From Sipunculus nudus (taxonomy: Eukaryota; Annelida; Sipuncula; Golfingiida; Sipunculidae), in the NCBI GenBank assembly GCA_026874595.1, contig CM049319.1, positions 17,520,601 through 17,584,600 on the forward strand: a stretch of 64,000 nucleotides of DNA, given 5' to 3'. The number at the start of each line of letters is the position of its first letter. Position 1 is the stretch's first letter. The notes under the pieces are model-generated. The model was given only the letters and a program-made list of their open reading frames with translations. It was not told where the DNA came from and did not search any database. Below, one piece after another: positions 3,886-63,478 of this stretch. The translations under genes were made by a program, and so were the position numbers.

Positions 3886-3916
<31 letters not shown>

Positions 3917-6008: not shown

Positions 6009-6060
<52 letters not shown>

Positions 6061-8025: not shown

Positions 8026-8031
8026 AATAAA
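8026..8031 (+). terminator. Candidate poly(A) signal of the lectin gene
   Basis: AATAAA lies about 190 bases after the lectin stop codon, the right distance for a short 3' UTR. The surroundings are AT-rich, so chance occurrence is likely enough to keep this tentative. Confidence 0.35.
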
Positions 8032-8077
8032 TTAACTAGTACTGTATAGTTTGACTTGTATCTTATGGAGGTTTTCT

Positions 8078-8445: not shown

Positions 8446-8448
8446 CAG

Positions 8449-8466
8449 CCCCCCCCCCCCCCCCCC
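8449..8466 (+). repeat. Poly-C tract (18 nt)
   Basis: C18 immediately after the end of the dispersed repeat copy, followed by further C-rich sequence. Confidence 0.95.
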
Positions 8467-8469
8467 ACC

Positions 8470-9668: not shown

Positions 9669-9689
9669 GAGGGTGGCAGACATGGGGTC

Positions 9690-9836
9690 TATTACAGTTG
9701 TTCTATTACTATTACTATTACTATTACTTTCAATTTCTGATATTACTATTACTATTACTATTACCACATTTTATCTTCTATTACTATTACTATTACTATT
9801 ACTGGGGTATCTATTACTATTACTATTACTATTACA
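9690..9836 (+). repeat. TATTAC hexamer array, left subterminal
   Basis: Several runs of TATTAC/ATTACT units separated by short spacers, inside the left end of the transposon. They produce a spurious Leu-rich open frame. Confidence 0.9.
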
Positions 9837-11634
9837 TGTACTTAAACTGATGGTAGGATTCTAGACCTTGCGCAGCCATGAGTGCTATAAACTAGCACTA
9901 CAATCACATGTTTAAATAATATTAAAAGCAACTATATCATCCAGTTACCTACACAATTTTCTTATACTGTGTTATTGTCATTTACAAGAAGCCTAATAAT
10001 ACTGGAGATCTTTATTATTTCAGCTTCTTTAATTCTGTTTTTTTTTAATATTTTGAAACCTCGTTATTGGGGTGTTTCAAGTCGAAATTATAAGATAATT
10101 GTATGAACTCTTGAATACATGTAATTAAAAGCAACCCATTGTAAAGGCCTTAGCATATTTAAAATATTGATTTATAATTATATGCATGCTTGTTCATTTT
10201 ATATTATTTTCATATATATTTCACATAAATTTATTTTATAGTACATACTTCCGTTTCGATTTAATCTTCGTTCTCATAGTCAATAAATAAAGATTTTCAG
10301 TGTAACTAAAAATTGTCTCCAGAGGAATTATTCGTGATTATTGCATATTATTATTTAGTATCAAAGCTGACAATTCAGTCCTTTATGTATTATCAGGAGA
10401 GGAATTTATGTAGGGCTGTGTCCTGTTTCCAAATCCTTATAAATATATCCAGTAAAAATACTGTTTACGTCAAGATTCTGGACAGAAACAAACTGGAGAC
10501 AAAAGTACCCCATCTTCTCGAGTGTATTTATTCATTTGGATGTGATGCCACATTTTATTCCATCACATAATACATCTCGAGAGTGACCAGAGAGGTGGTA
10601 AATTTTACAATAATGGAAGCAGGCAGGGCTTTTATTTTTCAGGCATGCCCTTCTTCATTGCAGCAAAACAAGCACAGGACAATTTAGGAATGTGGAGAGC
10701 GATTTAAACTTACATTAATTTTACAAAACAAATAAAATATTATTTAAATTTGGTATTAAACAATCTTGTACTTAAATTTTGTACATAACAGGATCTAATT
10801 ATTTAATGTCAAAATTTATATATTTATATATAAATATATATATATTTATATAAGATATTAAATAATAAAATATGAACAGTTACCTATATTCTCATATTAT
10901 TTAATCAAATAAATTAATATCATGAAAAAATGGTTCATTTAATTTTCAAAATGTAAATTAACATAATTTAAGATACTGAATGAAGGTCTGCAAAATTGTT
11001 ACTATGAAATAACAGACAAGTATTAAAAGAATAGTTTTAAAAAGAATATGTATATAAATTAACTAGATAATACATGTGCCTGCAGTATGACTTTATCCAA
11101 GTGATTGTAGTACTGGTCTGAGTTTATAGCATTGTAGGCTTCAGTACATTATGGGTAGTGAAAACACCATAAGCTTATCATGAACATTTTGGGTCTGCAC
11201 TGAACCTGGTTCCTTATTATATTTTTCTTGAATGATGTGTTATTGCAATTTGTATGATTAAAATGCAAACTGGCTTGTGAAAACAAATCTAGGTACATTT
11301 CAGAATATGCATATGGATTGATGGATGTGAGATAAGATGTACATGTCACAATAATAAAAAACTATATTTATCTGTCTCTTAACATCAAACATGCCTCTGT
11401 TTATCCATGGTTTACTAATCAAAGGTCAGATTGTGCCAGGTAACTTATTTGGCTGTGACCTACTCTGTCCAGTACTCTTATGTATTTAGCACCAGTGGTC
11501 ACCAGCAATGTGACAGCTTGCCAATGCTTGCCTCAACAATAGGCACATCCTGGGCAGTTACTGGACAAGAACTGAGTCTGTTCATGTAGCATTTATATTT
11601 GCTGATATGCTTAATGATCAAGGGGCTTACAGGA

Positions 11635-11795
11635 AGTAATAGAAAGTAATATGTATTACTCTATTACTTTGCCTTCTGTTTCTATTACTATTACTATTAC
11701 AGCTCAAATTTTTGAGTCTATTACTATTACTATTACTATTACATGGAAAAAGCTGTAATAGTCTATTACTATTACTATTACTTATTACTATTACC
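11635..11795 (+). repeat. TATTAC hexamer array, right subterminal
   Basis: The same hexamer in the same orientation as the left array, reaching the right inverted end. Confidence 0.9.
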
Positions 11796-11812
11796 CCATG
11801 TCTGGAGGGTGG

Positions 11813-12135
11813 ATTAAGTATGGATCGCTGATATTTAAATATATAAAGGTAATAAAGCTAATGAGTTTTAATATCCATAAATGCCTGTGTATTTATCTTT
11901 TGCACCTTGTTCTCGTACACATATATTATATTTGTATACGGTATATTTGTGTATATATCAAAGGTACTGTATCGTTTGTTCTTTATCCTCAATATTCTTA
12001 ATAATACATACATCAATTCGAGAATATCGCATTGTTATTCATAATGAATTTAATGTGTAATTGTTATAAAGAAGGGTGACAGAAAAAGAGATAGAATTGA
12101 GAACTAAAAGTGTCCAAGTTTTGAACGAAGGCAAT

Positions 12136-12174
<39 letters not shown>

Positions 12175-13583
12175 TTGTTCAAGTCATGCAAAATCTATTA
12201 ACTTTAAGTCTTTTCATATACCTTATACACTTTACTCTGACACAATGTTGATACCCATGAGTTGAACATGGTATTTTCAAGATGCAAATCATCCTTGACT
12301 TGGTATATTCTTGATAAAGAGAGTTTAATCTATACCAAACTGTCCGTCGTCATGGTTACTGCACATGGTTGACTACATTTTACTTTTCTGAAAACAACCT
12401 TGGCGGAGATGCCCTTTCCGATGCTTTGCGTTTAAAATCAACTTCATTAATTTGATTTCTCAAAATAAATAAAATCCATTTTATAAAATAATTGTTTTAA
12501 ACGATTATTACGAAAGGTCCACCTTACGGTAACCTTATGAAATAAGGTTTCGGTATCAGTTCAGAGACCACAATTACACTGAAGTAAAAGAGATTTCGTC
12601 ACCCGTGTTATTTGAAGAATGGGTTTAAGTATGTGGTTAAATCTAATTATTTCCTGTGCTATACAAATTTCCAAAGTTGGTGCACATATTATAGGTGACC
12701 GCATAGTATTCTTGCCAAGATGTGCAACATTACTCATGTTGCTTCAGTTGAAAGAACAGCTAAGGTTAAAAGAAAACCTTCAGAACAAACCGTCTTTCCG
12801 CCGAAGTGGTTAATGTTTTATAAAAGTCCAAACAAATATGAAGTGCTTTGAGGTGAGCCATTCTCAGCTGAAGGGTGCGAAATATTTATCTGAACCACAA
12901 CCTTATCTTAATTGGTACAGAAACCACAGTTTTATCAAAAGCACGCTTAATATGCCCACGCGCCCCTGTTATTTTAGTTTTATAATTGGTCTAGTATCTC
13001 TTTAAATCAACGTGTCACGGTATAAATAAAATGTCCAACCTGTTAGGAGTCATGCATCGGTATGGTTCCCTCAATATTTGACGGTATGTGAGACATTAAA
13101 AGACGTTTTGGTGGCCATGTACAACTAGTTAGGCATGACATCTCTGGTTGTCGAGTGGAAGTACACCTCAGAGTAGACTGGTATGTGCGCACAAATGACC
13201 TCTATGGCAAAGGGAGCAGTCAGGATAATAAGGTTGCCTAGAGACCAAGTATCACTCGTTTAAGTAAGTATATTTAATACCCAAAAAATAACTAGCTTGT
13301 ACCTAAACTGGGTATACATTAATCGCATAAGCGCATGAAAAACTGAGTTCCGAGCAAATTTTTGTGAGACAAATTGTATATCTTATATAAATTGCCTTAT
13401 ATATTTGTTGAATCATGTATTAATATTTTTTAATTTTATGTAAACTGATGCTCTAAGTATTCAAAAATTATAAACGAAATAATATGATAAAGCTTTCATT
13501 AAATGAAAGGGGGAAATCGTTTTGGTAACAGAAAATAATATTAATCCCCAAAATAAGTTGACAATAAATTGCTACAAGACCCG

Positions 13584-26000: not shown

Positions 26001-29000
26001 CTTCCCTCACTCCAAGGATAACAATTATCATAATCTTACATAACTTGAGTTAAACATCATCAATTATAATACAGCTTATATTACCACACAAAACCAGCAT
26101 TTGCCTGCCTCCTCTTCCAAATAATATTTTGTGATCATATATAGCAGCTGAGTGCCATGACCCATGGGTCCCTTGTTTGTCATCCTTTAAGCTGTCTGTC
26201 TTCCTGTCTGTCTGTTAACAGGGCACAAATCTTAACTGTTTGACCAAGAAGTTTCTTATTTAATATCAGGGGAGGTCCTTTGTGTTTTGAAAACTAAAAT
26301 TCTGTCACTGTGACCTTTGTTCTAAGAGTTAAGAGGCCTGTTTAGCACACCAGATTTGTTGGACAATTAAAACGTATGGCCATTGGCCCAAGTCATATCA
26401 TCTTCTTATGGCCACACCCAGCAAACCCAACAAAGTGAAATCATGCAGTACAAATGTATGGTTGTGCATAAAGTATTGTGTAAAAAACATGAGTCCATTA
26501 TAGGAGAGTTTTCTTGTCTTCAGTAACATGACGTATGTTTGTTGTTTACAGCTGTGTGGTGCGGGCCTGTTTGGGATGGGACTGTACTTTCAGCTGGAGA
26601 GGAATTACATCGCTGGCATCTTGGGTCCTCAGCTGTACACCGCAGCATGCTTCATCCTAATTGTCTGTGGCTGCATCCTCATGTTGTTGTCCATGTTGGG
26701 ATTTGCAGCATTTGTTGCCCTTCGACCAACCCTTATTATTGTAGTAAGTATTTTTATACACCTGTCATATGATGGGATTATTATGGTTTATGCACTTTCG
26801 GTCCATCTGTTAACTTTTAGTATCACCAGGATAACTTAGAGGGGCTTTGGTGGATTTTTGCACCATAATTACTTACCAACAGATTACCTGGCCCACGTTT
26901 GATTATGGGCAACGTCCATGCATATTTAATAAGGTCAGGGGTCACTCAGCTACTTTGTGGTATTGGCATGATAACTCCCAAAAAATATAAAGGATTTTTA
27001 TAAAACTAATTAGAATTGTTAATTATTATCGAAATCCAGCGAAATCCATGCATATTTAATGAGGTCAGTGGTCACTGTGAGGCACCTTGGTGATTTACCA
27101 AAAATCAGATGGATTTTCATGAAACTTATACATATTAACCACTAGACTTTCTCTCCTGATTTTTATTCTCATCAAAATTCATGCACTTTTAATGAGGTCA
27201 GAGGTCACCATATTTTGGAGGTACTTTGGTGACCTACAAAAATCTATTGATTTACATGAAACTAATTATACATATTTACCAGTAGAGTTTCTCACCTGAA
27301 TTACATTCTCATTAAAATTCCTGCATATTTAATGAGGTCAGAGGTCACAAGACAAAAGAAGGGTGTATTTTGCACATTTGCATTGCTCATGTTTGTTATG
27401 TTTTCATCTTGCTGGGTTACTTTGTTGGTTTGTCTGAATTCAACTTTATTGATAAAATTTATGAACAGAATATTTTGATGAGTTTTGTGATGGGTTTGAT
27501 TAATATTCAAGGTGAAGTCCATTACATTTTTTTATGATTATCTGGATCACAATTATTTGCTTTTAATTTTAAGGGTTCTTTACCAGTTTGATATTCCCAT
27601 GCATTCTTAATCCCAGATTAGGGCAAGAGCAGTTCTGTGGTATTAGGGGCCACATTTGTATTAGAGCTAGAATATGACCCGAACATTGTTGGTGTATTTT
27701 TGTCTGTGTAACACAAAGCAAAATAAGGATTCTGGCAGGGGTATGCATATTATCTCAGACTGCTATTCTTGATTTAGTAAGTATTTCATACACTATGTTC
27801 TTCTTGTGATATTGAAAGAAAGTCACTTAAGATTTTTCAGATCAAATTAAATTCCAATCCATTAAATGTTATGAAACTCCAGTGTGTTGAGTAAAATACC
27901 CCCCCCCACATGTTGTAAACATGGATATACACAATCTATGTGTACTATAGTGTGAAATTTCCTTATATAAAGAAAATGGAAAAGTTACTATATTTAGTGT
28001 TGTACATTTTCAAGAATTTTGATACATTCTTATATCCCTTCAATAATTAAGTGTCAAAAATTTAAAAATTGTTGTCTCAGTCAGTAAAAATATGAAAAGA
28101 GGATAAAAACACCAGCTTCTGTAGCTCAGGGGTAGAGCACAGGACTCAAGGCCGGGAGATCGTGAGTTCGAATCTCAGCCGAGGCTGTGAGATTTATCAC
28201 GGTCGCCCCCACCCAGGGTCAGCACTCTGCAGGCTTAATGGGAAGGCTGTGCCGAACGGCCGTGGTTCACTCACAAACAAGGGTGACTTTTGGGGGTTCC
28301 TCCGTGGTATGACACAGCAATGGGGATGGTTACGCACCAAGGACCCACAGATGCAGTAGTCACCGGGCCTGGTTAACACCTGGATATAAAATGAGAGAAG
28401 GAGTGTATTCTAGCTGAAACTGGAATGGAATCCTGCTGATGTACATATACTTTGTTAAGTTAGCCTTAAAAAATGATGGGGGTTACCTCCGTCAAAGAAA
28501 GAAAAGAGGATAAAAATACCCACACTCTTTCCATATATTTTGTATGATGTGGCCTGATCTTATTTTTTTCTTCTTTTTCAGTATGCAGGTGCTTTGATCA
28601 TCATCGCTCTCCTTTTGATTGCTGGAGTCATCGTGGCTGGTATATTCCATATACATGTAAATATGTATTTCATTATTTTTAGGCCAAAAGAAAAAGGTTT
28701 TAGTTTTTTCAGGCACTTTGTGTATCAGATTTAACCCCTGGCATCAACAATATTAATTAGGTTTTCTGGTAGAAAATATACTGGTTTTGAGCTCCAGCTG
28801 CTCAGACCATTCTTTCCAAAAAAATTGGTTAATAAAACATGATTCCTTTGTTGTGTGGTTAGATTACACCTTTTTAGCAAAATTATTCTGTTATTGTCAT
28901 GTTGCCCCTGATTATATGAAATAAACATGAAAAAAGGTACCATATGTAGGTTTGAAAAAATTAACCAGCCTGTGCTGAAAACAAGTGCCTGAGAAACCTA

Positions 29001-32000
29001 CCTTTTTGTTGGCCTTTCAGTAATATTACACTAGTTGATGATGCCCTCAGTTTAATATTAGTTGTAAATATTAACATTTTGGTTAAGTTATAGAATTAAA
29101 AAAAGAGTCATAAGGATCTCTCTAACACGTTCTTGCAAAGGTGCACTCAAATTCCACAGCAGGTGTTATATTTGTTAATAATTAGGGCCCAGCTCAACTA
29201 GTGGTGCCATGTAGTGATCACTGTGTCAGCCCATCCTTACGTCTTTCTGTACTTCTGTACTCAGTGACACATTCTTTCATGCGCAATAACTCAACAACAA
29301 CATAATTCAGCTTTCTCAAATTTCAGAGACTATTGGTAGATACAAGAACCTTAAGACCTATTGAATTACAAATCTGTCGGAATTCCAATATGGCTGTTAC
29401 AGCCCAGTAACTGATTTTCTTTTGTGCGCGATGACTAAACACCAACATATTTTAGCTCTCCAAAATTCACAGGGTATAATTGATACATATGAGGGCTCCA
29501 GACCTATTGAATTACAGACCTGTAGGAATTCATATATGGCCGCTGAGGCCAAATCGCTGATTTTCTTTGGTGCCCAATAACTCAACAACAACATGCTTCA
29601 GCTTTCCCAAAATCAGGCGATGATTTCAGTGTACATATGATGGTTCCAGACCTATTGAATAACAGACCTGTGGGAATTCCAGTATGGCAACAACAGCCCT
29701 ATCGCTGATTTTCTTTCGTGCGTGATTTCTCCACAGCAACATTCTTTAGCTTTCCAAAATTCACAGGGATGATTGTTACATATTAGGGCTCCAGTACTAT
29801 TGAATTACAAACATGTCAGAATTCCAGTATGACTGCCACATCCCAATTGCTAATTTCTTTTGCGCTCAATATCTCAACAACAAAATGCTTCATTTTTCCC
29901 GAAATCACAGGGATGATTGGTACATATGAGGGCTCCAGACCTATTGAATTTCACAAATGTCGGAATTTCAAAATGGCGGCCATCTCAGCCCGATTGCCCA
30001 ATCTTAATACTGTTTTAAGTAACATCTAAATACACCATTTCTCACTTTAGGGCCCTCTGAGGACCATGGTCCAATTACATCTAGTTTAAATGGTGTCTAG
30101 CATAACTGGAACTTGTAGCTAGAAGCTATAGTGATGCCAGTGTGGAATTTAATATAAGCAAGTTTGGCATAATAAGGTTGAAAGCAGCATCATCCAGGAA
30201 TTAAATGTTGCAAAATTTAATTAAAAAAATAAAATATTATAAAACATTGTCAGTGACTGTGAAGTATTACTTTGTCTGATGGATTAAAAAAAAACTATCA
30301 AAAGAGGTTTCCTGTAACCTTTCCCTGGTTCTGAATAGCCTGTATTATTATGTGTGATAATCATTCTTTGTATGCGTTTATTAAAGATTGAGGAGCGTGT
30401 ACGAAATGAGATGGAGAGGAACATAGAAGATGGTTACGGTGTAGATTATGGTGTCACGGAAGCCTGGAACAGGACACAGGATATGGTAAGTTTGATTGCT
30501 GGAGCACAACCAGTTTCTCAGGGGTGGAGCAGTACTACCATATTCAGGGGGAGGGGTTGGAGCTGGAGTACAACCAACAATTTCGGGGGGGGGGGGGAAG
30601 TGAGTAAGACATCTCAAGCATTTCTGTTGAATCTATGCTCCTAATATCAGAAAATATATGTAGTTTTAAGAAGCATATTATTTCTGATTTCTCTATAGTA
30701 AAATAAACTTAGAAAACTCAAGTTCTTTTTCATACTGATTATTTAAATTTTATTTAATATATTTGATGTTTAAAATCTTAAGAGAATTCATTTATATATA
30801 GAAACACAGTTTGCAACATGAGCCCAGATGCCAGAGAGGGTCACATAATCAAGGTTTTTGAGTTTGAGTTTTGGATTTAGGAAAAGAGGGTGGTCCAACC
30901 CTGGAGGACTAGTGGAAAACTTAAGAAAAGGTCCCCAAATCCAGAAAAGGGGTTCCATTAAAAAAATTTGGTCTGAAACCCTTGAAAAAGGTTGTTTGGA
31001 TAAAAAAAGGGTGGGTCTGGATGCCGGGCCCCTGGATCCACTTCTGGTGGTCATGTTACAGACCTGATTGTAGGAAAAATGGTTATAACAAACAAAAATG
31101 TAAGATATTTTAAAATGGTTCAGTATCCAGATTCAATGACACACATCCTATTTGTCCATTCAAAATGAAATGCAAGTGTAGCATATATTGTTGTGGTTTG
31201 GATATAGGATGAGCATGCCCCCAAGATTTGCAATACTGCATAGTCACATTTAGACACACCTATTATATTTTAGTTTATTTTTATTTTTAATGTGTTTTCA
31301 ATCACTACAGTGAGAATTTGAAATGTGCTGCAAGTGCATAGGTATATACACATACATACTGCATACACACATATGGAATCACTCCCAAGAGAATATAATG
31401 TGTGCGATTTCTCGCTGCATACACATACATAATACATACTTACTGTATAGGCACATATGGAATGCTACCTTTATACAGTTATTCTCAGTGGTATATTTCA
31501 TTGGTTTCATTTGACTTTAATATATATGACATACATTGTGTGAGGCTGATTTTTGTTCTGCCTTGATCAGCTTGGCTGCTGTGCTGTGAGGAACAATGGA
31601 TGGTCGATCTACAGAAACACCAAATGGTTCCGTGATGAACCTGGAGTTCAGGGGTCAAGTGAGTATACTGTCAGTTTATGTCAGTGTGGTTTTCATCAAT
31701 GAAATTAACTAGGATACTTGCGGTCATTTTTCTCTCCAATATTAGAGGGTCTAGTGAGATGTCATAATGGCAGCCCATGCCATAAAAAAAAGTCAGTTTG
31801 AAATCTTAATGAGGAAACAAATTTTTTATTATGTTTGCCAATATTCCATTCAAATTAAAAATTTAATGGCCTTAAACTTAACCAACTGTTCAGTATATTT
31901 GTTAACTATCAGACCACACCCTCCATGTTTGTGAAAAAGATGTTATTTTATCTCAGTATGTTGTTAAATCAGCCTGCATTTTTGTTGAATTGGGATCTGT

Positions 32001-46650: not shown

Positions 46651-46656
46651 TTTATT
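46651..46656 (-). terminator. Candidate poly(A) signal of the minus-strand gene
   Basis: AATAAA on the minus strand, the first seen after the stop at 47237, implying a 3' UTR of about 580 bases. Tentative. Confidence 0.3.
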
Positions 46657-47236: not shown

Positions 47237-50200
47237 TCACATATTTTCCATAAAGAAGAACACCACACCGAAACAAAGTATGGTGGCGAAGTACTTCTGA
47301 TTGGCTAATCCTGAAATACATATTATGTAAATTGAATATGTGCAAAACATATTCTTAAACATTTTGAAAATATAAGGAGCATATAAAGAGAAATATTTGA
47401 TTTTAATAATATAAATACAGGAAAGAACTGTGGAACTTAATCGTTTCTGCCGTTATACTCTGTTCTATAGTTTCCTGGAAACAAGGGCATAAATTGGGTT
47501 TATAATCTGATACCACTCTTTGAGAGTCCCATCCCACTTTTCACTTTTCCTTCTTGGTCTCTCTTCTTGTAATTTTCCGGCCCCCATTTCTGGCCAATTA
47601 TTATGAAAGGTCTAAGGGATTTTCTTTAGTTAATAGACATCGGTAAAGGCCACTTTAATGACAATTGTCATAATAAACATACAAAACCAGTTCTCATACA
47701 CTGCCACTATCAAATTACTGGTTTAAAGAGATTTTTAAAGTGGTGGAAAATTGTTTTTATATAATATGTTAATCCAGCCTTATGCAATCATTTTGAGAAA
47801 TGTCACAGTAATTGTTTCTATTGACCATCTTGAATAAAGATTGCTTCAAGTAAAGAATACCGGTAATTGTTCTTATAACCACATGTGCTCTTCTACAGTC
47901 AAGTCGGAGCGAGACAGATGGATGATGATGATAATGAGGTTGTTAATGATGATGATTATGATGCTGATAATGATCATCATAATCATCATTGTAATTATGA
48001 ATATAACAAATAACAAGAAATTTGCACTCAGACAGTTCAGACCTTCATCAAGGTCTTTTTCATTGAAAAAAATCCTGGATCCAGACGGTGATCCCCATCA
48101 CCCCCAAAATTTATTTAATTGTTCTTGTATCATTGACGAGCTATCTTGAAAATTTCATCAAAATTTGTTAATAACATTTTTTTAGTAATGTTGCTAAAAC
48201 ACAAACAAACCTTCCTTGGCGGAGGTAATAAGGAGAAGAAGACTAAAAAAAAAGAAAGAAGGAACACCATACCAGCGGTACCGGAAGGTGACGTCATATC
48301 TCTCTCTGAAACAGGACCCTTCTTCACAAACTTATTTGCAGTCGGTCGCAGCATCTTAATTGACTCTACATCAATCACTGTCAAAGAAATATCAGCTGTC
48401 GGAGGAGGCGATGAAATGACGTCACTTCCCGTGGAAGAGGAACTGCGCGGCTCTTCTGTTGTTTGCATTACCGAGTCACATGCCGATAACATTTCTTTGA
48501 CCACTTTGTCCCCGCTTTCTTCTGTGAAGGCCAAAACAAAGAAAGACTGTAACATTATATAGTCCGTTCTACCAGTTGGTGCCCATTGAAATTGGGAAAT
48601 AGTCTCTTGAACTATATGTGTTCCCACAGAGCGTGACTAAAGCTGATGAAGGACTATAGGCCTAATATGAAACTTGTCGCCAAGTTATATGGCGTCTATA
48701 ATTGGGTACCAACTTAACTTTAAAAGTTACTTTTTTAGAATATTTATGACACTTAACTAAAATGTAGTTTGTTTGATCATGTGACCAGTGACCTTGACCT
48801 TCATCAGTGGAGTTGAGATGTTAAAAAAAATATACTGTTTTCCATATATTGATTTTATATTGGAGTTGAGATGTTAAAAAAAATATACTGTTTTCCATAT
48901 ATTGATTTTATTCAATCACTTAAATATTTTCAATGTAAGGTTTTGGTTTCATTCTAATTAAATGAGCCTGTGCCTCATTTCTTCATGTCAGCTTACTCTT
49001 TTTTAAGTGATCTGACATAATTCTGAAAATATCCCCACATTTCAGTAGGCACCCCTTCGTGGATCTGGCTATAATACATTTTATTCCTTCTTAACAATTC
49101 TTAAACACTTCAGCCGTTCTATACTTTTCAGTATTGCTTCCCTTGGCAGGATTTGCCTGCATATGCGCTGGCACAGTCTGGGCTCCTTATCAAACAAATG
49201 ACAGCGAGGTGTCGCAGGTTTAATTGTTTGGATTTGGATGCACAATACCATATCATTGTTCTGAAAACTATTCTAGACTCTCTGCCAGAGCGGGGTTGTA
49301 AAACCCGACATACTTTTTATTCAGAAATCACTATGGGCGGGCGGTATTTTATTTTTCAAGTTGACTTTTTTTGTATGTTACGATAAAAATGTCAAATGAT
49401 CAGGGAAAAGCATGAAATAACAGTTTGTTTGCTAAACAGGTAAAAGCACTACATAACAATGGAAATCGTGAAAAAAAGTGTATTACTTTATCTTCTTGAA
49501 AGATGTAAATAAAAATAAACATTTTTGATGCGGAGGGTTAAAATTGACGCGGGTGGTGCTTGAAACCATACCTTTTATTTTATTTTATTTGTTTTTCCTA
49601 ACCACTGCGTAAGTGCGGTACGCGTAGTTTGTTTCATCGAGATAGATTCGATCTATTCTTTTTAGTTTGTGCTCTTTCTTTAACATGCTATTCTATTCAG
49701 AACTTAGCGTCAATCCTTTGCTGAATCCTAGTAAACCAAGAAAAGAAACATTTTGACATACTGATTGTTCACAGAAGAAAATCTAATGTTTTAAGCAGCA
49801 GTTTGCATTTGAATGGAAATAAAGTAAAAGTGATGAAGAATAAGCCTGATACAAGTGTATTCTTGTTCTTTGACCTAAGATAAAAAGTAATCTAAATTGT
49901 TCAATTTAGAGAAGTCATGTAGACAAATTCCACGGAATCCACCGTTACCATTGCAATATTCCAGAATTATATAATCATTTCCTTTGTTTTACCTAATTAT
50001 TGTTGTTGTTTCAAAGTATATGTATATTTAACACTTCGTTATCCCTGTCATTTAAATACTCTTACCTGGCAGGCATGCCTTTAACCAACACTGAAGAACC
50101 TCCTTGGGTTGGTCCAGTTTGTTCAACGATCTAAAATAGTTTTATGCAGAATGTACAACAGGGTATCAAATTGTCATGTTCATTAAATTATAGATCAGTT

Positions 50201-52508
50201 ATAAATACAGAATCTGTTGCATATTTTAGCCTTTTCCTTAATTTCCCTTTACGCCTCTAAGGCCTTGCTTGTTGAAAAAAAAATGTAAGAGTGAATAACC
50301 ACCCCTACCACGGACAAAGACCCCTCAACGAATTACGGAGTCCGCTTGAAGTCTTCCCAAAACACCCCCTGTGAGCAAAGGGGTTTGTTAATAAAATACT
50401 AATTTTTGTCACATGATTAGTGTAAATATATATTTTGGTTGTATATTTGTGCTCAATTTTCAAGACCAGTGTGTGAAGAATCAAGACTAGCGTGTAAAGA
50501 ATCTAGTGGGGCGTGTCAAGAAACAAGACGAGCGTGCAAAGAACCAAGGCGTGTTTGTAAAGATTCAAGAAGAGCGCGAGAATTATGATTATCATATAAA
50601 GAATCAATACGAACGTGTAAAATATCAATACGAAGGTGTAAAGAATCAAGACGAGCGGGTCACGAATAAACACGAAAGTATAAAAAATCAATGTGAACGT
50701 GTAAAGAATCAAGACGTGCGTGTAAAGAATAGAACGAACGTGTAAAGAATTAAGACAAGCGTGTAAAGAATCAAGACTAGCATGTAAAGAATCAAGATGG
50801 GCGTGTAAAGAATCAAGGCGTGTTTGTAAAGATTCAAGAAGAGCGTGATAATCATGACGAGCGTATAAAGAATCAAGACCATTGTGTTAAGAATCAATAC
50901 GTACGTGTAAAGAATCATGAAGAGTGTGTAAAGAATCAAGAAGAGCTTGTTAAGAATCATGACGAGTGTGTAAAGAGTCAAGACGACCTTGTAAAGAACC
51001 ATGGCGAATGTGTAAAAAATCAAGATGAGTGTCTTAATTATCTTGATGGGTGTGTAAAGAATCAAGACGAACTTGTAAAGAACAATGACGAGTGTGTAAA
51101 GATTCATGACAAGCATCTAAAGAATCAAGACGATTGGGTCAAAATTAAAGACGCGCTTGTAAAGAATCATGAAGAGTGTGTAAAGAATCAAGACGAGCTT
51201 GTAAAGAATCATGACGTGTGTGTTAAGAATCAAGCCGAGCTTGTAAAGAATCATTAAGAGTGTGTAAAGAATCAAGACGACCTTGTAAAGAACCATGGCG
51301 AATGTGTAAAGAATCAAGACGACTGTCTTAATTATCTTGACTAGTGTGTATAGAATCAAGACGAACTTGTAAAGAACAATGTCGAGTGTGTAAAGAATCA
51401 AGACGAGCATCTAAAGAATCATGACGAGTGTGTAAAGAGTCAAGACTCGCTTGTTAAGAATCATGATGAGTGTTTAAAAAATCAAGATGAGCGTGTAAAG
51501 ATAATGACGATAGCGTAAAAAAATCAAGACGAGCTTGTAACGAATCTCGATAACATGTAAAGAATCATTATGAATGTGTAAAGAACCATAACGAGTGTGT
51601 AAAGAATCAGGACGAGCTTCTTAATATCATGACGAGTGTGTGAAGAATCAAGACTCGCTTGTAAAGAATCTTGACGAGAGTGTAAAAAATCAAGACGAGC
51701 GTGTAAAAAATAACGACGACTGCGTAAAAAATAAAGACGAGCTTGTAAAGAATCATTGTGAATGTGTTAAGAATCAAGACGAGCTTGTAACGAATCTAGA
51801 CGAACATGTAAAGAATCATTATGAATGTGTAAAGGATCAAGGCAAGTATGTAAAGAATCAAGGCGAATATGTAAAGAATCATTGGGAGCGTAAAAGCGTG
51901 CACACAATTATATTGTTGAGATGGTCCTAAATGATTCGGGGAAGTTTCGGCCTGGATAAACTGTTTTTAAAGGGCCGTTCATGCGACAGGGTCCAATACA
52001 TAAGTTACATTATGAGTGACCATGTGAATTACAACACATTTGCACATACTTGCATAGATCTGTTGAAGACATGTCGAACTCTAGTGCATGGAGGACTCGT
52101 CCGGCCTCTGGTCTGGACAAAGCCCCAAGAGGTGCACAGCTGGTTACGTCACCCAAGTGACAGAAGTCAGAAATCACTATGAATAGAATACAAATAAGGT
52201 ATTATAAATATGAATATCTTATTATATACATAGTAGTATATCAGTGGTATAACATGGACATTATCATTCTCATTTTAAGGTATGATTAAATTAATCAAAT
52301 GGGACCTACAGTTGCAGAGTTCACAAAATCTACATATATAACATGTCACTGACCGTCAATGCACACCCCGCTGGTGGTGATCTGACATGAGTACTCGTAG
52401 TTGTAATCGTCAACACGACAGGCGTAGTAGTCCTCAACCTCATGTTCCCTGTCACAACCCTCTGTCTCGTTCTGTGCACAGTAAATCTCACTCTGTAGCG
52501 CCCTAATG

Positions 52509-52540
<32 letters not shown>

Positions 52541-52765
52541 TACTTTATGTCTGAAATCGCAAGGAAAGCCTCCCCGCTCCTTGACCCTTATCCCCTCCCC
52601 TGGTATTCCAACTTATCCCCTCCCCTTTATCCGCTAGTCAGCTTGAATATTAGGTGAAGATCTAAAAAAAATATCAAGTGTAAAAATAAAACATGGCCAA
52701 ATGACAGTTTTGAAAACAAAGTAGATTTCAGAACACACACACCTACATTTACACACACACACACA

Positions 52766-52828
<63 letters not shown>

Positions 52829-53228
52829 AATCAGTCAATTTGTAAATTGCCTGATTCACTCAGGCATTTTACAAATTGACTGAAAAATCAGTCCAATTAT
52901 TTGACAGATGGATGTTGTTGTTTAGCAAGTAACTCACGCAATCATGAAGGAAAACTCATGAAATGTTCAGGGCATTTCGGGAAAGGGCCAATGAAGAATC
53001 GATTAGTTTTTTGTTCGGATCAAGGAATATTCACAAATGTAAGATCATATATGCGGGAATGAATTTTTGAATATGGGCCGAATAAGTGAATGCAAACATC
53101 CCACAGTAGGAACACACCATATGGCGGACGCTTACATTCCTCAGAAATTCCTAGTTTCTGATTTTGTCATGTTAGAACTTAAAAACTTCATGACTGAAGG
53201 AATCTTGTTCCACACAAATGATTATTAT

Positions 53229-53319
<91 letters not shown>

Positions 53320-56300
53320 TTATAAATGAATACTCACCAACACCGCTCGTTTTCAGAGATGTCAGGAGGAAGATCGTCTAGTGCACAGTCTGCGTGTATC
53401 TTCTCCATGTCTTTAGAACAGTGGTCTGATTGGAAGAACAAACAGAACATGCAGAAGTTAGAATAACTAGATGTTTAAGTCATCTCATCATTGAAGTACC
53501 TTCCTATATAATGCATATGGGTAATTGGAGCTATTTACAAAGCAGAGAAGCTATTAAAAATCTCCTCTATGAAACATTTTCGGCAATAAAACTCCTGTGC
53601 ATAACACAATGTATTTGACTGTAAAATAAACCTACCGGCATACATAAGACTCGTCAATGTCTTTTATTATACATAGTACACCTTAGGTGTACCCTAGTTG
53701 TTACACCATGGCGCCTACATATATATAGTCACGGGTAAAGCTAGGATTAATAATAAAATCGTGGTACATATATTAAGAGAAAAAGAGGGTGCCTGTTAGT
53801 CGGGCTATTTCAGCATGAGAGTTTATGTTCTGATTAATGCTAGTATAGTCAACATGTCACAAAATATAATCACCTCGTTCCATATATTATCGACGTGTGG
53901 AGCATCACTTATAAAGTTGTTATGTATATCTTAAATGACTGTTAAAATGGCGATGCGCAATATTGCTCCATGAAAACTGATCCTAACTTCAGTTTGACAA
54001 TGTTATGACGATATTAATTTGTAGGTGATAACATCTAATAATCAATTCTTAGAGTGTTTCCGTCTGTTGTTTCCATATACTAAGGATGTATCATTATGTA
54101 TTGTACTGGTGCTACTGGTGTTATGACAATTTTAAGTTCTATCGACCTTGGGCGGGACGCCAGCTGTCCAACCGAGGTCGAGGCCATAAATAATCTCGTA
54201 ATAATCTCGAAACGTATTGCGGTTTGACATTGGACAGATATCCTCAGACATACACAGACATATGTCACTAAGCAAGTTTCAAGTGGTATAGGCCATGGAG
54301 CCCTTTGATAACGGACACGTAAGATAAAGCTGGTATCTCGCGAAGGTCATGGCACACTTTATATGAACTCAATATGCAGACAAGGTTTATGATTTTTTTT
54401 TTAGGAGGAAAGTCAGAAAATGTTCAGGCACATGTAGGCCTATTTTATATTCTTTAAACATAAAAATCATATATATAGGATTTAAATAAAGAGAAGATAA
54501 TAAAAACTCGAATGTGCAGTCTGTTTTTTATTCCTTTACCCCAATCAATCCATAGCAGTAATAGCTGGTCATCATCTTGTAAGATATTATGAGTAGATGA
54601 ATATTTTAAAGAACTCTAGGTTTTTCCCACTAAGAAAGATTCTTATAATAACTCCGTGGCGTATATATGACATTGTTTATCTACAGGGTGTTAGTACACA
54701 CGGTAAATGCGCGCATATCATGACAAGCAGAATTAAAACCCACATCTTTGAAGGCATCTTGTTGCATATGTATGTAAAACGAAATTTTAAAATATGCAAA
54801 ACGCCATTTGGAAAACTTGGGTTCGTCTGGCTTGCTGTCAGACAGCATTTCTGAATAAGCCTGGTTTATTTAGGCTTGTCCCCCACACCTTACCAAAAGC
54901 GGATATAAACAAAACCAGAAGCCTGTGTATCGTGAGATCGGTGTTTCCTGGCCTATTCCTATGAATGGTTCAAGGGATTGTCTATAGTTAATATATGTCA
55001 GATATCTTAATGGGCAATTTTAATTTGGAAAACTGGGCAGCGAAACATTGGTACATAATATGGTCGGATACTAAAATAAACTGGATATGCAATTGGCCTC
55101 AGACCATGGAGCCACAACTATGTAATAAATCTAGTATCAAATGAGTAAAACCTAGTATCAAATAGGTAAAACCAAGAATGAAATGGGTAAAACCTCGTAG
55201 CAAATGGGTAAAACCTAGTATCAAATAGGAAAACCTACTATCAGATAGTTAAAATTAGTATCAAATAGGTAAATCCTAGAATCAAGTATGTAAATCCTAG
55301 AATCGAATAGGTAAAACCTAGTATTAAGTAGGTAAATCCTAGAATCAAATGGGTAAAACCCAGTATCATAATAATGTGTAAGAAGTTTTCACCTGCATTA
55401 TTTGTAGATTCAATGTCCTCATTTATGACTCACTCCGGTACATATTAATGAACACCTATTCCTGCTAATAAATGGTTGTTATTATGCCCCTGTGACGGCG
55501 GTATGAGCTTGGTCATCTACAGGTTGTTAGTAAACATGATACATAAGCCCACGTTAACAAACAGAAAAAAGGAACATCCAAGCAAAGGTGGTGCAAGGGC
55601 GGAAGTTGTTGGTTCAGGTTAAAACATAAGAAGAAACCTTTTTTTTTGTCAAACTCAGGTTCGATATCCCCCCCCCCCCCCCCCCTTGTCATTGTTGGGA
55701 GTTTTTTTTTTTGGTACAGACCAGCAGCCATTTTGTCATCCCCATTTGTTATAAACACGTCGATATAAATAAAAGGGACAAGTCTATTCAACATGAGATC
55801 CGCACTTTTTGGCTTATTTGTATAAAAGATCCATGGAAGCATCTTTATTTGGTAGACGTCTGATATCGGAATAAACCCCTTTAAGAAATGCATGGTATGT
55901 CTTGACCAGGGTTGCTGTGTCTCGGGCCCCCAACAGCCTCCCCTTTTGGGTTAACTAATGTTTCGCCCATGTTTCTATATATTCATCAAATTCCACAGTG
56001 ATATGTATTTAAAAAATACTAAATTAGAGGTTTGGGACCGTATTAATAACTAGAGTTTTGGGACCGTCTTAATAACTAGAGGTTTGGGACCGTATTAATA
56101 ACTAGAGTTTTGGGACCGTATTAATAACAAGAGGTTTGGGACCGTATTAATAACTAGAGGTTTTGGACCGTATTAATAACTAGATGTTTGGGACCGTATT
56201 AATAACCAGAGGTTTGAGACCGTATTAACCAGAGGTGTTGGACCGTATTTACCAGAGTTTGGGGACCATAAAGGTCCTCAATTAGGGTCTCTAATTTCCA

Positions 56301-57069
56301 GTTACTCAAAATTGCAGCCCTGTAACACTATTGGATATCAGATTGATCCGATTAATCAAATCGATCACCACGAATAAACTGAAAGTGATAAATTTTAAGA
56401 AAAATCACAATTTTATATAAATAAACATTGCGAACGAATTTTATCATATATGCCTAGTTTGACAGAAGTCTGAAAGGGCAGTTCTGATATATGATAGGAC
56501 TGGTACGGAGCTCTGAAGGACACCAATCATACCTCTGAATGTTAAGAAAGTCAAATGTAATATCTTTTAAACAGTGCGCGTGATTCAATAGGGCTAGAGT
56601 CTCTATAGGCACCAATCATCCCTGTGAATTTGACAAAGATCAAAGACATCCTTTTGAGATAAGGCGCGAGAAAGAAAATCACCAATTGTGGTTTGCAGCC
56701 ATAATGGATTTCCTTCGGGGGGGGGGGGGGGGGATGTATTAGTCGATAGAGCGGGAGCCTTCATAGGCACCAGTCATCTCTGTGACTTTGGGAGAGATGA
56801 AATGTAAACTCAGAGTTAATGCGCACGATAACTATGGGCACTGCTTATCTTGCTGGGCCCTGATTAAAAATAATAGATAAATAATACGTAATATTAACTG
56901 ATAAAGATGATAACGTAAAGGAATCTTACTGCATTCATGTGAATCGTTGTAGCCGTCTATTTGACGCTGGACGTTGGCTTTATAATGGCTGGCAAGGCTG
57001 CAGTTTTCAAGAACGCGCCGAACACAAGACAAGGTCTCGTTGAACACTAGATCTTTGATGCTGAAAAAA

Positions 57070-57135
<66 letters not shown>

Positions 57136-57224
57136 ACCGCACCAACCGTTGACAGATCACATCTGAAGATTGCGAATGCATGAAAACACGTGTTAATGTG
57201 TAACTGAACATTTTCGTAAATTAT

Positions 57225-57286
<62 letters not shown>

Positions 57287-59145
57287 TGAAACCTCGAAGT
57301 CGAAGGAACGCTCAGAAAACTTCGACACATCCGAGATTCGACACAACCGGGTTTGGTAATAATTTATCTTGAGTTGTCCTTAATATCGAGTCTGGAACTT
57401 CGGTATTCAGGGTATTGGACTTAAGCGAGTCCAACACGAGGTTTCACTGTATATATTATATATATTAATATATTCATTATGTATATTCTTAAATTCCCCT
57501 GCATAAATGTTGAATTTTCAGACCGTATGAAAAAAATGGCTTGCAGGGGATACTGGGCGATTTGTACGCAACACAGGACATGGCACGTTTCCAAAGAGAT
57601 GAATTTTCACCACGTGTGGATTGTTTGTATCATTATTTTATGAATAGACTGGTTAATAAAAGACATTTTCAGGCTGAAATTTATAAATACTATGGACACA
57701 CTTTTGAGATTAAAATCCTTTCCCTTCTCAGTGCCTTCTCAATCTATAACATACATAAAAATAACATACAGGACGCGGGGACCAGTCTGGTCCTAATCAT
57801 TAAGCTGTTTCCATCAGCGCGTATATGCGTAAACTTGCAGACGTATATATTTACGCAATGGATCTAGCAGGTTTTCCACATAAAGATGATGAAATGCCGT
57901 CATTTTACCCCGAATCCCTGAGTTCAAGCAGACCCTATGCGTGAAAATCGTTCCTGTGGTGCATATACACTGACGGACACAAAGAACACCCCAGTTACAA
58001 AATCATATGAGGGATTTTTCACGCATTTACGCATGTACGCGAACATAGAAACACACCTTACACTTTTCGATGCATTTCGGCAGCAGTTCTACTCTAGGCA
58101 GGATATATAAATTGGTATAAACACTTAATTTTTTAATTACTTACCGACAGAATTCCTTCTCTTTAGTCATGACTGGTCCTAATTTATTTCTCATTGGTTC
58201 CAAACACTCCGCTCCCAGGGAGGCGACATTGCAGACGGCCATAGAAGCGCTCCGAACTGCAGCATCAACTGCATTTCCATTGGCTGAAAAATAATTTGTT
58301 ACTTACAGAATATATCCAGATTGCCCTCAGACTGCGCATCCTTCGAATAAAATCTTCCGAAGAAAATATAATTGATATTATACATTCTGAGTTTGCATAC
58401 AGCTAAAGAAGTACACCGGAATGCAGCGTCAACTACTTTTCAATTGGCAGAAAACAATAATTAAATCATTTATGTATCATACCTAGAATGCCCTCTGAGA
58501 GCAAAGAAAGGGTAAAGGTTTTTGGTTTATAGCCTGACATCACTCTATGAGAATCTCATCCGACTAGGACCTGTTCATTCTTGCAGTTTTTTTCGGTTCC
58601 CTGGGGGTACGCACCCTACACACGTTTTTGTACACGCAATAGGGTTGTCCATTCCACATTTTGCCCGTCGCCCATTCATTCCGGGTGGAGAGAACGCACC
58701 CTCGTAGCAAAGACTTTGGCCAGGAGTCTTAGTGAGGACGGCCGTCGAAACAGGATTAAAACCCATGCAACGCCTTGCGGTCACAAGTCCAACTATTATG
58801 CCACCTCACACATACCAACATACAAACTTGGAAAACATACATACACCTAGAGAGATGAACAAGACATGGAGTTTGGATTACCCTCTCCTTTACAACTTTA
58901 CAGCTGTTACTACAACATTTAATAAGAATGTCATTGTATGAAAACTTACTGATATATATTTACTACCACCAATCTGCTTAGGAGAAGGTTTTAATAATTT
59001 GTAAGTTATCTATTTATTGCTTAACTAGGAAATCCTACGTATCATTAGGTTAAGAACACACCTCGATGTAGACCGTGCTTAATTAAGGATATTTACCTGT
59101 TGCGGGTCTATGCAAAAGAGCTTATGAAACAAGATAAAATAGCTA

Positions 59146-59220
<75 letters not shown>

Positions 59221-59351
59221 TAAAGATATACTACATGTGTGGCAATGATGGGGGATTGTATAAATATATATATATATATATATAATATAAAATTCTACTC
59301 ACCATGAGCCACAATGACCAGTATACACAGAATCTGTCTGAGGGAATCCAT
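47237..59351 (-). CDS. Cys-rich secreted or surface-anchored protein, 356 residues, family not recognised
   Basis: Nine minus-strand exons join with every phase agreeing: 59351-59303, 58283-58145, 57060-56930, 53425-53338, 52502-52354, 52176-52050, 50130-50066, 48521-48273 and 47310-47237 (1071 bases with stop). Residues 1-16 are a signal peptide ([16 protein letters not shown]). Residues about 31-260 carry some 20 cysteines in three segments with a repeated layout, C-x(8-14)-C-x(4-7)-C: CRIKDL..SC..NC; CWALQ..YC..GC; CKSLN..QCWLKAC. They look helical, reminiscent of DUF19/T20D4.11-like Cys-rich domains, but I cannot confirm that. Residues about 265-330 are Ser/Thr/Pro-rich. The end, [14 protein letters not shown] plus MENM, suits a GPI signal or tail anchor. 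Sequons include NET and NDS. If the intron after 52354 is retained, TGA at 52346-52348 gives a 187-residue secreted form. A TATA box lies upstream. Confidence 0.72.
48041..48245 (+). mobile_element. LINE (RTE-like) 3' tail remnant
   Basis: AAGGTCTTTTTCATTGAAAA, ATCCTGGATCCAGACGGTGA, AAATTTCATCAAAATTTGTT and AACAAACCTTCCTTGGCGG resemble the conserved 3' region of RTE-type LINEs and the SINEs that share it (from memory, unchecked). It lies in the last intron of the minus-strand gene, next to the donor of exon 8. Confidence 0.4.
48808..48912 (+). repeat. 53-bp tandem duplication
   Basis: Two essentially identical units starting TGGAGTTGAGATGTTAAAA and ending CATATATTGATTTTAT, indicating a recent duplication in an intron. 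Confidence 0.95.
48920..50040. other. Intron of the minus-strand gene, nothing recognised
   Basis: No further exon fitting the phase chain was needed or seen between 48521 and 50066. Confidence 0.5.
50464..51895 (+). repeat. 21-bp minisatellite, about 68 units
   Basis: The unit is close to GTGTAAAGAATCAAGACGAGC. Because 21 is a multiple of three, the + strand reads as a charged heptad (VKNQDER, CVKNHDE) and the - strand as a hydrophobic heptad (LILYTLV), giving long open frames on both. Stops and frameshifts break every frame. A 294-bp (14-unit) higher-order repeat is visible at 50981 against 51275. It lies wholly inside the intron between exons 6 and 7 of the minus-strand gene. Confidence 0.95.
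52503..52541 (+). repeat. (AAT)n microsatellite abutting a splice acceptor
   Basis: Read on the minus strand it is (ATT)n followed by ATCATTAG, whose AG is the acceptor of the exon ending at 52502. The normal pyrimidine tract is replaced by the repeat. Confidence 0.9.
52750..52830 (+). repeat. (CA)n(TA)n microsatellite
   Basis: CA run at 52752-52768 followed by a TA run to about 52817, then TTTATATATATAAA. Confidence 0.9.
52831..52883. repeat. Short near-perfect hairpin
   Basis: 24-base arms TCAGTCAATTTGTAAA... and ...TTTACAAATTGACTGA pair with one mismatch around the 5-base loop TTCAC. It is located in intron 4 of the minus-strand gene. It could be the end-to-end remnant of a MITE or an RNA hairpin. 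Confidence 0.75.
53221..53316 (+). repeat. TA microsatellite
   Basis: ATT units then long TA runs, ending about 20 bases from the donor of the exon at 53338-53425. Confidence 0.9.
53640..55120. other. Intron of the minus-strand gene, dispersed repeat fragments
   Basis: 54940-55020 resembles 47590-47670 (CTATTAGAAAGG..., AAGGGATTNTCTNTAGTTAATA), suggesting a low-copy dispersed repeat. The 85-codon frame at 54597-54854 has no domain. Confidence 0.4.
55126..55372 (+). repeat. ~20-bp minisatellite, about 12 units
   Basis: Unit AAACCTAGTATCAAATAGGT with substitutions (AATCCTAGAATCAAGTAGGT). Confidence 0.9.
55669..55685 (+). repeat. Poly-C tract
   Basis: C17 in the same intron; produces Gly codons in the minus-strand frame at 55513-55893. 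Confidence 0.9.
56020..56268 (+). repeat. ~28-bp minisatellite, about 9 units
   Basis: Unit AGAGGTTTGGGACCGTATTA followed by ATAACT. The last two units are shortened. Confidence 0.9.
56480..56825 (+). repeat. ~120-bp degenerate tandem repeat with poly-G tract
   Basis: The block ATAGGCACCAATCATCCCTGTGA recurs three times (near 56520, 56610 and 56765). A G17 tract is at 56717-56733. Confidence 0.6.
57073..57132 (+). repeat. TA microsatellite
   Basis: Pure TA run about 12 bases outside the acceptor of the exon at 56930-57060. Confidence 0.95.
57284..57449 (+). mobile_element. pogo/Tigger-like MITE, 166 bp
   Basis: Perfect 13-bp inverted ends CAGTGAAACCTCG and CGAGGTTTCACTG, each flanked by TA (57282-57283 and 57450-57451). 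Inserted at the edge of a TA microsatellite (57222-57283), as expected of a TA-targeting element. No coding capacity. Confidence 0.85.
57460..58140. other. Intron 2 of the minus-strand gene
   Basis: The 108-codon frame on the + strand (57541-57867) has no domain, and it lies antisense in an intron. Nothing else seen. Confidence 0.4.
58520..58812 (-). mobile_element. tRNA-derived SINE, second family, copy 2
   Basis: The minus strand begins GAGGTGGCATAATAGTTGGA, then ACTTGTGACCGCAAGG, and continues with GACTCCTGGCCAAAGTCTTT and GGGTGCGTTCTCTCCACCC. This is the same order as 32470-32690. The tail near 58520-58560 resembles 47495-47535. Confidence 0.7.
59148..59290 (+). repeat. TA microsatellites
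   Basis: TA runs at 59148-59217 and 59263-59285, close to the donor of the signal-peptide exon. Confidence 0.95.
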
Positions 59352-59407: not shown

Positions 59408-59445
59408 TCTCTGAAGTGAGAAGGCTGTTACAGCCAGTTATATAT
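59408..59445 (-). promoter_or_regulatory. TATA box and likely start region of the minus-strand gene
   Basis: On the minus strand ATATATAA (59445-59438) lies about 30 bases before a CTTCTCACTTCAGAG start-like stretch and about 90 bases before the ATG at 59351. This gives a 5' UTR of roughly 50-60 bases. Spacing fits a TATA promoter; start site not proven. Confidence 0.6.
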
Positions 59446-60818: not shown

Positions 60819-61033
60819 GAGGGGTGGATCCAGGATTTAGGAAAAGGAGGGGTCTAACACAGGATGACTATATAATGACAAACCTAAAGAAAAAGGTCCC
60901 CGGGTCAGAAAAAGGTGGGATCCAGCCCGCAAAAATGGGTCCGAAAACCTTAAAAAAAGGCTGCGTCGGCTAAAAAAAGAGGGGTCCGAACCCCCTGGAA
61001 CCTCCTCGCCCCCCCCCCCCCCCCTATCCGCTT
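60819..61033 (+). mobile_element. hAT-like MITE family, copy 3, with 8-bp target duplication
   Basis: Starts GAGGGGTGGATCCAGG and ends CCTATCCGCTT. The 8-bp direct repeat CTGTGTTA flanks it exactly (60811-60818 and 61034-61041). A poly-C tract (61009-61024) sits near the right end. 8-bp duplications are typical of hAT insertions. Confidence 0.8.
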
Positions 61034-62662: not shown

Positions 62663-63263
62663 ATGTCTGTGTGAACCTCTACTATAATTAAAAAGTATAA
62701 GACGATATAAATTAAGGTATAATGTTTCGGTATAGGTTAATTCTTACCCAGGCTCATATGTATGATATTTTATAATAAATACTCTGAGCTACCATGGGGA
62801 TACGAAATAATCGTATTTCCATAGAGCTACTGTTAGGTTCGGCATTGTGATTTTTTATAGTTTGAAGTGTATTTAATGTATTTTAAAATGAATTCGAATT
62901 GGTAGCTACTTCAGAATAATTTGAGTGACGAATTCATGATTTTATGCATTTTCATGTAGCAGATGCCTGGGACACAGCTGTTTCATTTGGTAAACTGCTG
63001 GGTCACAGTAGACCGCATGAGGTTGGTTTTACTGGCTGGTTTGTAAAACTGGTGTGTACAATGTAAAGTATGGCTGAAGTCATTAAAAAAATAACAGTCT
63101 GTTAAGGTCAAGCAATGCATTCCAAATCTCATTATTTTATTATATAACACAATTGCCCATGAAAAAAAAAATAATATAGACTTTGCATAGATTAGCAATA
63201 AATATAAGTTATGCCTGTGGATAAATTCCGGCATCGCTAATTAACACCTTTACCTGTGACCAC
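61800..63263. other. Intergenic with poly-G and TA tracts
   Basis: G17 near 62545-62560 and (TA)n at 62595-62661 with interruptions. No gene seen. Confidence 0.5.
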
Positions 63264-63478
63264 CAGGGACGGATCCAGGATCTAGGAAAAGGAGGGGTCC
63301 AACCCAGGAGGACTAAGAAAAAAAACCTAAAAAAAGGTCTCCAGGTCCGGAAATGGGGTTCCAGGCCACAGATTTGGTCTGAAACCCTTAAAAAGGTTGC
63401 TTCGGCTTAAAAAGGGGGTTCCGGACCACCTGGAAACCCCCCCCCCCCCCCACACCCCACCTCTCCGAATATCCTTCT
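63264..63478 (+). mobile_element. hAT-like MITE family, copy 4
   Basis: Starts CAGGGACGGATCCAGGATCTA and follows the family order through GGTCTGAAACCCTT and GGTTGCTTCGGCTTAAAA to a poly-C tract (about 63438-63451). The right end has decayed. Confidence 0.75.

What the first reader, a model, noticed from the sequence alone, without database searches (positions are those of the whole stretch)
47237..59351. Nine-exon gene for an unrecognised Cys-rich surface protein, hidden from simple ORF calling
Most exons are too short or lack an ATG, yet nine GT-AG exons join with perfect phase agreement into 356 residues. The product has a signal peptide, a threefold Cys-rich pattern, a Ser/Thr stalk and a hydrophobic end. 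The total of exactly 357 codons across eight junctions is hard to get by chance. The architecture suggests a GPI-anchored or tail-anchored surface protein of possibly lineage-restricted family.
Basis: partly seen in the sequence, partly recalled or inferred. Interest (0 to 1): 0.72.

Follow-up and report, generated by a model that had tools for sequence, protein, structure and literature searches.

The report
Nine-exon orphan cysteine-rich surface protein gene
A real but hard-to-see animal gene, split over nine exons, most likely makes a cysteine-rich protein tethered to the cell surface; it matches no known family well, and its job is unknown.

Summary
On the minus strand, nine GT-AG exons (59351 down to 47237) join to 1071 nt, 356 residues, 22 Cys. 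A crude gene finder with generic settings picks exons 2-8 base for base at all five penalties tried, with scores well above 20 shuffles each, but not exons 1 and 9; these rest on a signal peptide and a hydrophobic tail. New here: intron phases run 1,2,1,2,1,2,1,1, and three introns lie in phase 2 in the codon straight after a Cys, which splits the ectodomain into three two-exon units (61 of 200,000 random intron sets do as well). This speaks against exons 6-9 being another gene. '357 codons exactly' is not evidence: any open chain has whole codons. Residue similarity relates units 1 and 2, not unit 3. No Pfam family passes its cut-off; DUF7658 is a sub-threshold lead (15.4 bits against 27). 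Best reading: a GPI- or tail-anchored, probably helical, three-unit surface receptor or adhesion protein of a poorly described family. The anchor is the weak point: reading through exon 8 gives a rival tail with its own AATAAA.

The parts
59439..59444 (-). TATA-like box upstream of the start codon
   Evidence: pattern match; not tested against chance
59303..59351 (-). exon 1: start codon and signal peptide ([17 protein letters not shown]), intron phase 1
   Evidence: best donor and most hydrophobic of 8 candidate first exons within 5 kb; 0 of 5 in the accepted gene finder, 3 of 3 in the rejected looser one
58145..58283 (-). exon 2: unit 1, first half (Cys 1-3), ends in phase 2 in the codon after Cys62
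   Evidence: found exactly
56930..57060 (-). exon 3: unit 1, second half (Cys 4-6)
   Evidence: found exactly
53338..53425 (-). exon 4: unit 2, first half, ends in phase 2 in the codon after Cys135
   Evidence: found exactly
52354..52502 (-). exon 5: unit 2, second half, with two extra Cys
   Evidence: found exactly
52050..52176 (-). exon 6: unit 3, first half, ends in phase 2 in the codon after Cys227
   Evidence: found exactly
50066..50130 (-). exon 7: unit 3, second half (part); weak acceptor
   Evidence: found exactly
48273..48521 (-). exon 8: last Cys of unit 3 and Ser/Thr-rich stalk
   Evidence: found exactly
47237..47310 (-). exon 9: short hydrophobic C-terminus and stop (GPI-signal-like)
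   Evidence: best-scoring of three acceptors (47427, 47310, 47304) that lead to the first hydrophobic tail after exon 8; 0 of 5 in the gene finder
46651..46656 (-). AATAAA, candidate poly(A) signal of the nine-exon model
   Evidence: one hexamer, chance level not tested
48130..48272 (-). rival 3' end: read-through of exon 8 into a hydrophobic stretch and a stop, AATAAA at 48115
58393..58462 (-). decayed partial copy of exon 2 (with its acceptor region) inside intron 1, acceptor AG lost and a stop in frame
   Evidence: alignment score 59; 0 of 500 shuffles and 0 of 114 other pieces reach it; stop

Best explanation
A protein-coding animal gene on the minus strand with nine exons. The product enters the secretory pathway by a signal peptide (exon 1), folds into three disulfide-bonded, probably helical units of about 80-90 residues (exons 2-7 and the start of 8), stands off the membrane on a Ser/Thr/Pro-rich stalk (exon 8), and is held there by a C-terminal hydrophobic segment, most likely swapped for a GPI anchor (exon 9). 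Inferred: the units arose by duplication of a two-exon, phase 1-1 cassette. Inferred and less sure: it acts as a ligand-binding or adhesion receptor without its own signalling part, working with a partner in the membrane. Shown by computation: coding exons 2-8, phases, Cys positions. Inferred: exons 1 and 9, anchor type, disulfides, fold, function.
For: Model rebuilt exactly. E2-E8 recovered exactly by a generic gene finder at five penalties; scores of the whole predicted chain 154.8, 121.6, 94.7, 69.7, 50.9 against best of 20 shuffles 46.1, 16.8, 2.6, 4.4, 1.8. Phases 1,2,1,2,1,2,1,1; three phase-2 introns each in the codon after a Cys, 61 of 200,000 random sets reach three. Units 1 and 2 align better than 984 of 1000 Cys-kept shuffles. 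Exon 1 is the best of 8 first-exon candidates, and a phase-1 intron near a signal-peptide cleavage site is a known excess (PMC1626468, abstract read). AlphaFold on single exons, no alignment: exon 3 one helix over residues 2-40 of 43, mean pLDDT 78; exon 2 one helix over residues 3-21 of 45, mean pLDDT 61.
Against: Exons 1 and 9 are not chosen by the accepted gene finder, 0 of 5 each. Unit 3 is no more like units 1 or 2 than shuffles are (631 and 655 of 1000 score as high). MAFFT lines up only two Cys columns across the three units, one of them pairing Cys 5 of units 1 and 2 with Cys 6 of unit 3. Exon 7's acceptor is weak. Unit 2 has two extra Cys. The gene finder at four of five penalties inserts further exons between the real ones. 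No relative and no transcript was found, so purifying selection is untested. The single-exon folds are halves of a unit, of low to middling confidence.
Confidence: 0.62

Rival explanations
1. The gene is real but ends in exon 8: the reading frame runs on past 48273 through a hydrophobic stretch ([15 protein letters not shown]) and a basic, Cys-containing tail to a stop at 48130, giving a one-pass membrane protein instead of a GPI-anchored one; or both ends are used.
For: Open frame to 48130 and AATAAA at 48115, about 15 bases after the stop, with an ATTAAA at 48119; exon 9 is not chosen by the gene finder.
Against: The donor at 48273 is in the top 1.9% of GTs and the gene finder used it at all five penalties rather than ending exon 8, though each time joining it to an exon other than exon 9. 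The hydrophobic stretch comes from a T/C-rich run (by eye). The DNA after it looks to me like a dispersed repeat, but that is recalled and my test did not bear it out: a recalled form of it found 0 in viral contigs, and the window holds only weak partial matches.
Confidence: 0.25
2. Two genes: exons 1-5 make a soluble two-unit secreted protein, exons 6-9 belong to another gene.
For: The frame after exon 5 closes two codons beyond the donor (ends VCIDGQ); exon 6's acceptor is middling (top 16%) and exon 7's poor; unit 3 shows no residue similarity to units 1 and 2.
Against: Intron 5 is only 177 bases; the one in-frame ATG of exon 6 lies near its end, behind two of the unit's Cys; the next AATAAA or ATTAAA after exon 5 is about 2.8 kb away at 49589; the phase alternation and the after-Cys intron continue through exons 6-7.
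Confidence: 0.08
3. Pseudogene or chance assembly of open stretches.
For: A broken partial duplicate of exon 2 lies in intron 1; no relative was found; Cys richness alone is within chance (22 against a null maximum of 29). That the chain is free of stops is no evidence, since exons were chosen for it.
Against: Score far above shuffles and above 9 other strand-segments; G+C by codon position and exon-intron contrast; regular phases and intron places.
Confidence: 0.05

Closest known systems
DUF7658 (PF24678)
   Same: Weak match of residues 50-123 to profile positions 181-254, E 0.012-0.02; 0 of 8 Cys-kept shuffles hit it.
   Different: 15.4 bits against a cut-off of 27; none of the three single units hits it; I could not see what proteins the family holds.
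GDNF-receptor alpha / GAS1 (GFR-alpha co-receptors)
   Same: Same plan: signal peptide, three Cys-rich units, GPI-type end. That GFR-alpha proteins are GPI-anchored co-receptors is from PMC7529620 (start of abstract in the search listing); three helical domains is recalled.
   Different: No GDNF/GAS1 model among Pfam matches at E up to 10; Cys spacing here differs from the one I recall. A likeness of plan only.
T20D4.11-like / DUF19 and CPG4 (nematode Cys-rich secreted families)
   Same: Secreted, Cys-rich, probably helical (recalled).
   Different: Not among Pfam matches.
Saposin-like proteins
   Same: Small helical six-Cys units (recalled).
   Different: Not among Pfam matches; Cys spacing varies between units.

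Membership tests
DUF7658 (PF24678) | score at or above the curated cut-off (27 bits) | tested here: not met
   14.7 bits whole protein, 15.4 bits ectodomain
DUF7658 (PF24678) | full-length match to the 285-position model | tested here: not met
   only positions 181-254 align
T20D4.11-like / DUF19 | Pfam profile match | tested here: not met
   no match reported at E up to 10; HMMER filters drop most matches above about 0.1
CPG4 | Pfam profile match | tested here: not met
   no match reported (same caveat)
GDNF/GAS1 (GFR-alpha) | Pfam profile match | tested here: not met
   no match reported (same caveat)
GDNF/GAS1 (GFR-alpha) | triple-helical domain fold | not testable with these tools
Saposin-like | Pfam profile match | tested here: not met
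   no match reported (same caveat)
GPI-anchored proteins | small-residue cleavage site, short spacer, C-terminal hydrophobic stretch | tested here: inconclusive
   SPSGTAG, then LANQK, then [18 protein letters not shown] at the end in the nine-exon model; depends on exon 9; no GPI predictor on hand
Secreted proteins with signal peptide | hydrophobic N-terminus with AxA cleavage motif | tested here: met
   [17 protein letters not shown], most hydrophobic of 8 candidates; met in the model as built, so it depends on exon 1; rule recalled, no predictor on hand

The most novel reading that the evidence does not exclude
The gene founds an undescribed, lineage-restricted family of GPI-anchored receptors built from a duplicated two-exon cassette, a six-cysteine helical unit with a phase-2 intron fixed right after its third cysteine, that copies GFR-alpha's three-unit plan without being related to it.
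Probability: 0.2. Interest if true: 0.5.

Novelty: new member of a known kind. Interest (0 to 1): 0.3.

Why it matters
Genes like this, made of short exons without close matches in the family library searched, are easily missed or broken up by annotation. If the intron fixed beside a cysteine is old, it gives a marker by which distant members could be recognised when residue similarity has faded. Beyond that it is an ordinary kind of invertebrate surface protein until a function is found.

Tried and rejected
A first version of the gene finder with too small an exon penalty predicted 54, 43 and 34 exons at three penalties. At penalty -6 the gene's segment scored 372.3, above 12 shuffles (max 250.4) but below 3 of 9 other strand-segments (421.1, 384.2, 378.1). 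I rejected it as over-predicting and raised the penalty, changed the background and also charged the first exon. The rejected version took exon 1 exactly at all three penalties; the accepted one at none of five. The splice, codon and amino-acid tables in both are approximate and recalled. The accepted version still gives 17, 15, 13 and 11 exons at penalties -12 to -18 (9 at -20, with other first and last exons), and does not check stops made at junctions (one such stop shows in its -16 and -18 chains).

MAFFT on the three units lined up two Cys columns only, one of them out of register, so I compared halves anchored at the introns instead; one search had printed the intron test and then stopped on a script error. 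A blastn of the exons against the window showed only matches of 13-23 bases and missed the exon 2 copy, which full local alignment found.

Relatives: 0 in IMG/VR (5 stretches matched a pattern, none confirmed), 0 in GTDB genomes (42 stretches, none confirmed), 0 PDB chains at E up to 10. These are not collections of animal genomes, so absence means little. Exon-by-exon local alignment over the window found one clear relic, of exon 2 (1 of 9 exons). Papers, listings only: DUF7658 in 0 papers; 'T20D4.11-like domain' in 1, on spaceflight; GPI-anchored + cysteine-rich + bivalve + uncharacterized protein in 0; searches gave nothing that I used.

Full report
What was checked. The finding lies on the minus strand. 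I read the region, listed stop-to-stop frames and splice sites, and rebuilt the chain: 59351-59303, 58283-58145, 57060-56930, 53425-53338, 52502-52354, 52176-52050, 50130-50066, 48521-48273, 47310-47237.

Is it a gene? Exons are 39-52% G+C against 27-37% for introns, with coding-like values by codon position. Against 2000 sets of stop-free pieces from window 1-46000, G+C of 0.480 is near the maximum (0.485), but 22 Cys is not extreme (mean 13.7, sd 3.9, max 29). Donors are good (all 8 in the top 7.3%); acceptors are mixed, exon 7's poor (top 43%). A small gene finder with generic, recalled tables recovered exons 2-8 exactly at each of five penalties. Its chain scores were 154.8, 121.6, 94.7, 69.7 and 50.9, where the best of 20 shuffles reached 46.1, 16.8, 2.6, 4.4 and 1.8, and the best of 9 other strand-segments 123.2, 96.0, 76.2, 62.2 and 48.3. 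The best of those others, plus-strand 1-13200, holds lectin and PAN exons, so it is no clean null; two of the stretches also overlap. An earlier, looser version was rejected (see Tried and rejected).

The ends. Exons 1 and 9 were chosen 0 of 5 times by the accepted finder; the rejected one took exon 1 3 of 3 times and exon 9 0 of 3. Exon 1 has the best donor and by far the most hydrophobic peptide of 8 candidate first exons in 5 kb, an AHA motif at the border, and a TATA-like box at 59444. A phase-1 intron at a signal-peptide cleavage site is a known excess (PMC1626468, abstract). Of 70 candidate terminal exons in 6 kb after exon 8, 8 are hydrophobic, from three places; exon 9 is the best-scoring of three acceptors leading to the nearest of these. 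The AATAAA at 46656 lies about 580 bases beyond the stop. The rival end, reading on through exon 8, closes at 48130 with AATAAA at 48115. Both models leave a hydrophobic segment behind the stalk; they differ in GPI against transmembrane.

Gene architecture. Intron phases are 1,2,1,2,1,2,1,1, and exons 2-7 have lengths 1,2,1,2,1,2 modulo 3. Three introns (after Cys62, Cys135 and Cys227) lie in phase 2 in the very next codon; 61 of 200,000 random sets of eight introns have three or more such (the test was framed after seeing the pattern). This divides the ectodomain into three two-exon units with Cys spacings 8,18|12,7,22; 10,14|8,7,11,10,7; and 7,27|14,4,16, the bar marking the intron. The plan suggests duplication of a two-exon cassette. 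Residue similarity backs it for units 1 and 2 (16 of 1000 Cys-kept shuffles score as high) but not for unit 3 (631 and 655 of 1000), and unit 3's last Cys falls in exon 8. So the threefold repeat is likely, not proven. The same regularity, with a 177-base intron 5, argues against two genes.

What it might be. Pfam gives only DUF7658 at 14.7-15.4 bits against a cut-off of 27, with 0 of 8 Cys-kept shuffles hitting it (one shuffle hit another family at E 0.43). The single units hit nothing. PDB by sequence: nothing. Single-exon AlphaFold models contain one helix each (exon 3 mean pLDDT 78, exon 2 mean pLDDT 61), consistent with helical units but half-units only. The stalk, 69 residues, has 21 Ser/Thr, 7 Pro and no Cys. 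There are four N-glycosylation motifs, at residues 70, 82, 101 and 147.

How it most likely works. Secretion, disulfide folding of three units, display on a stalk and membrane tethering follow from the anatomy (inferred). Having no room for a signalling domain, it would act by binding: as a co-receptor, adhesion or recognition protein (inferred, low confidence). Its plan resembles GFR-alpha co-receptors, but no GDNF/GAS1 profile match was found, so it is a likeness and not membership.

Limits. No animal genome collection was available. The window's own assembly could not be reached. The species is not known to me; an invertebrate, perhaps a mollusc, is a guess from the look of the sequence. 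Lineage restriction, expression and selection are untested.

Noticed in passing
58393-58462: Decayed partial copy of exon 2 with its acceptor region inside intron 1, with a stop in frame and the acceptor AG lost.
   Followed up: yes
50460-51882: Satellite array of 21/42-base units in intron 6 that keeps a 145-residue frame open on the plus strand.
   Followed up: no
3213-3545 and 7474-7839: Plus-strand frames with a C-type lectin domain (E 2e-10) and a PAN domain (E 2.2e-7), perhaps one gene with the Thr/Pro-rich candidate exon at 6263-6397 (no Pfam match of its own).
   Followed up: partly
30387-30599: Plus-strand candidate exon with a sub-threshold match to the NAGLU barrel (E 0.085, 12.2 bits against 25.5).
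   Followed up: no
28115-28186: tRNA-like match by Rfam (30.8 bits, cut-off 29) that ARAGORN does not call; perhaps a tRNA-derived SINE.
   Followed up: no
60830-61030 and 63260-63460: Two similar stretches opening with ggatccaggat-t/c-taggaaaaggagggg and ending in a run of C, seen by eye; perhaps a dispersed repeat.
   Followed up: no
48808-48911, 55127-55373, 56025-56249: A perfect 53-base tandem duplication and two minisatellites within introns.
   Followed up: no
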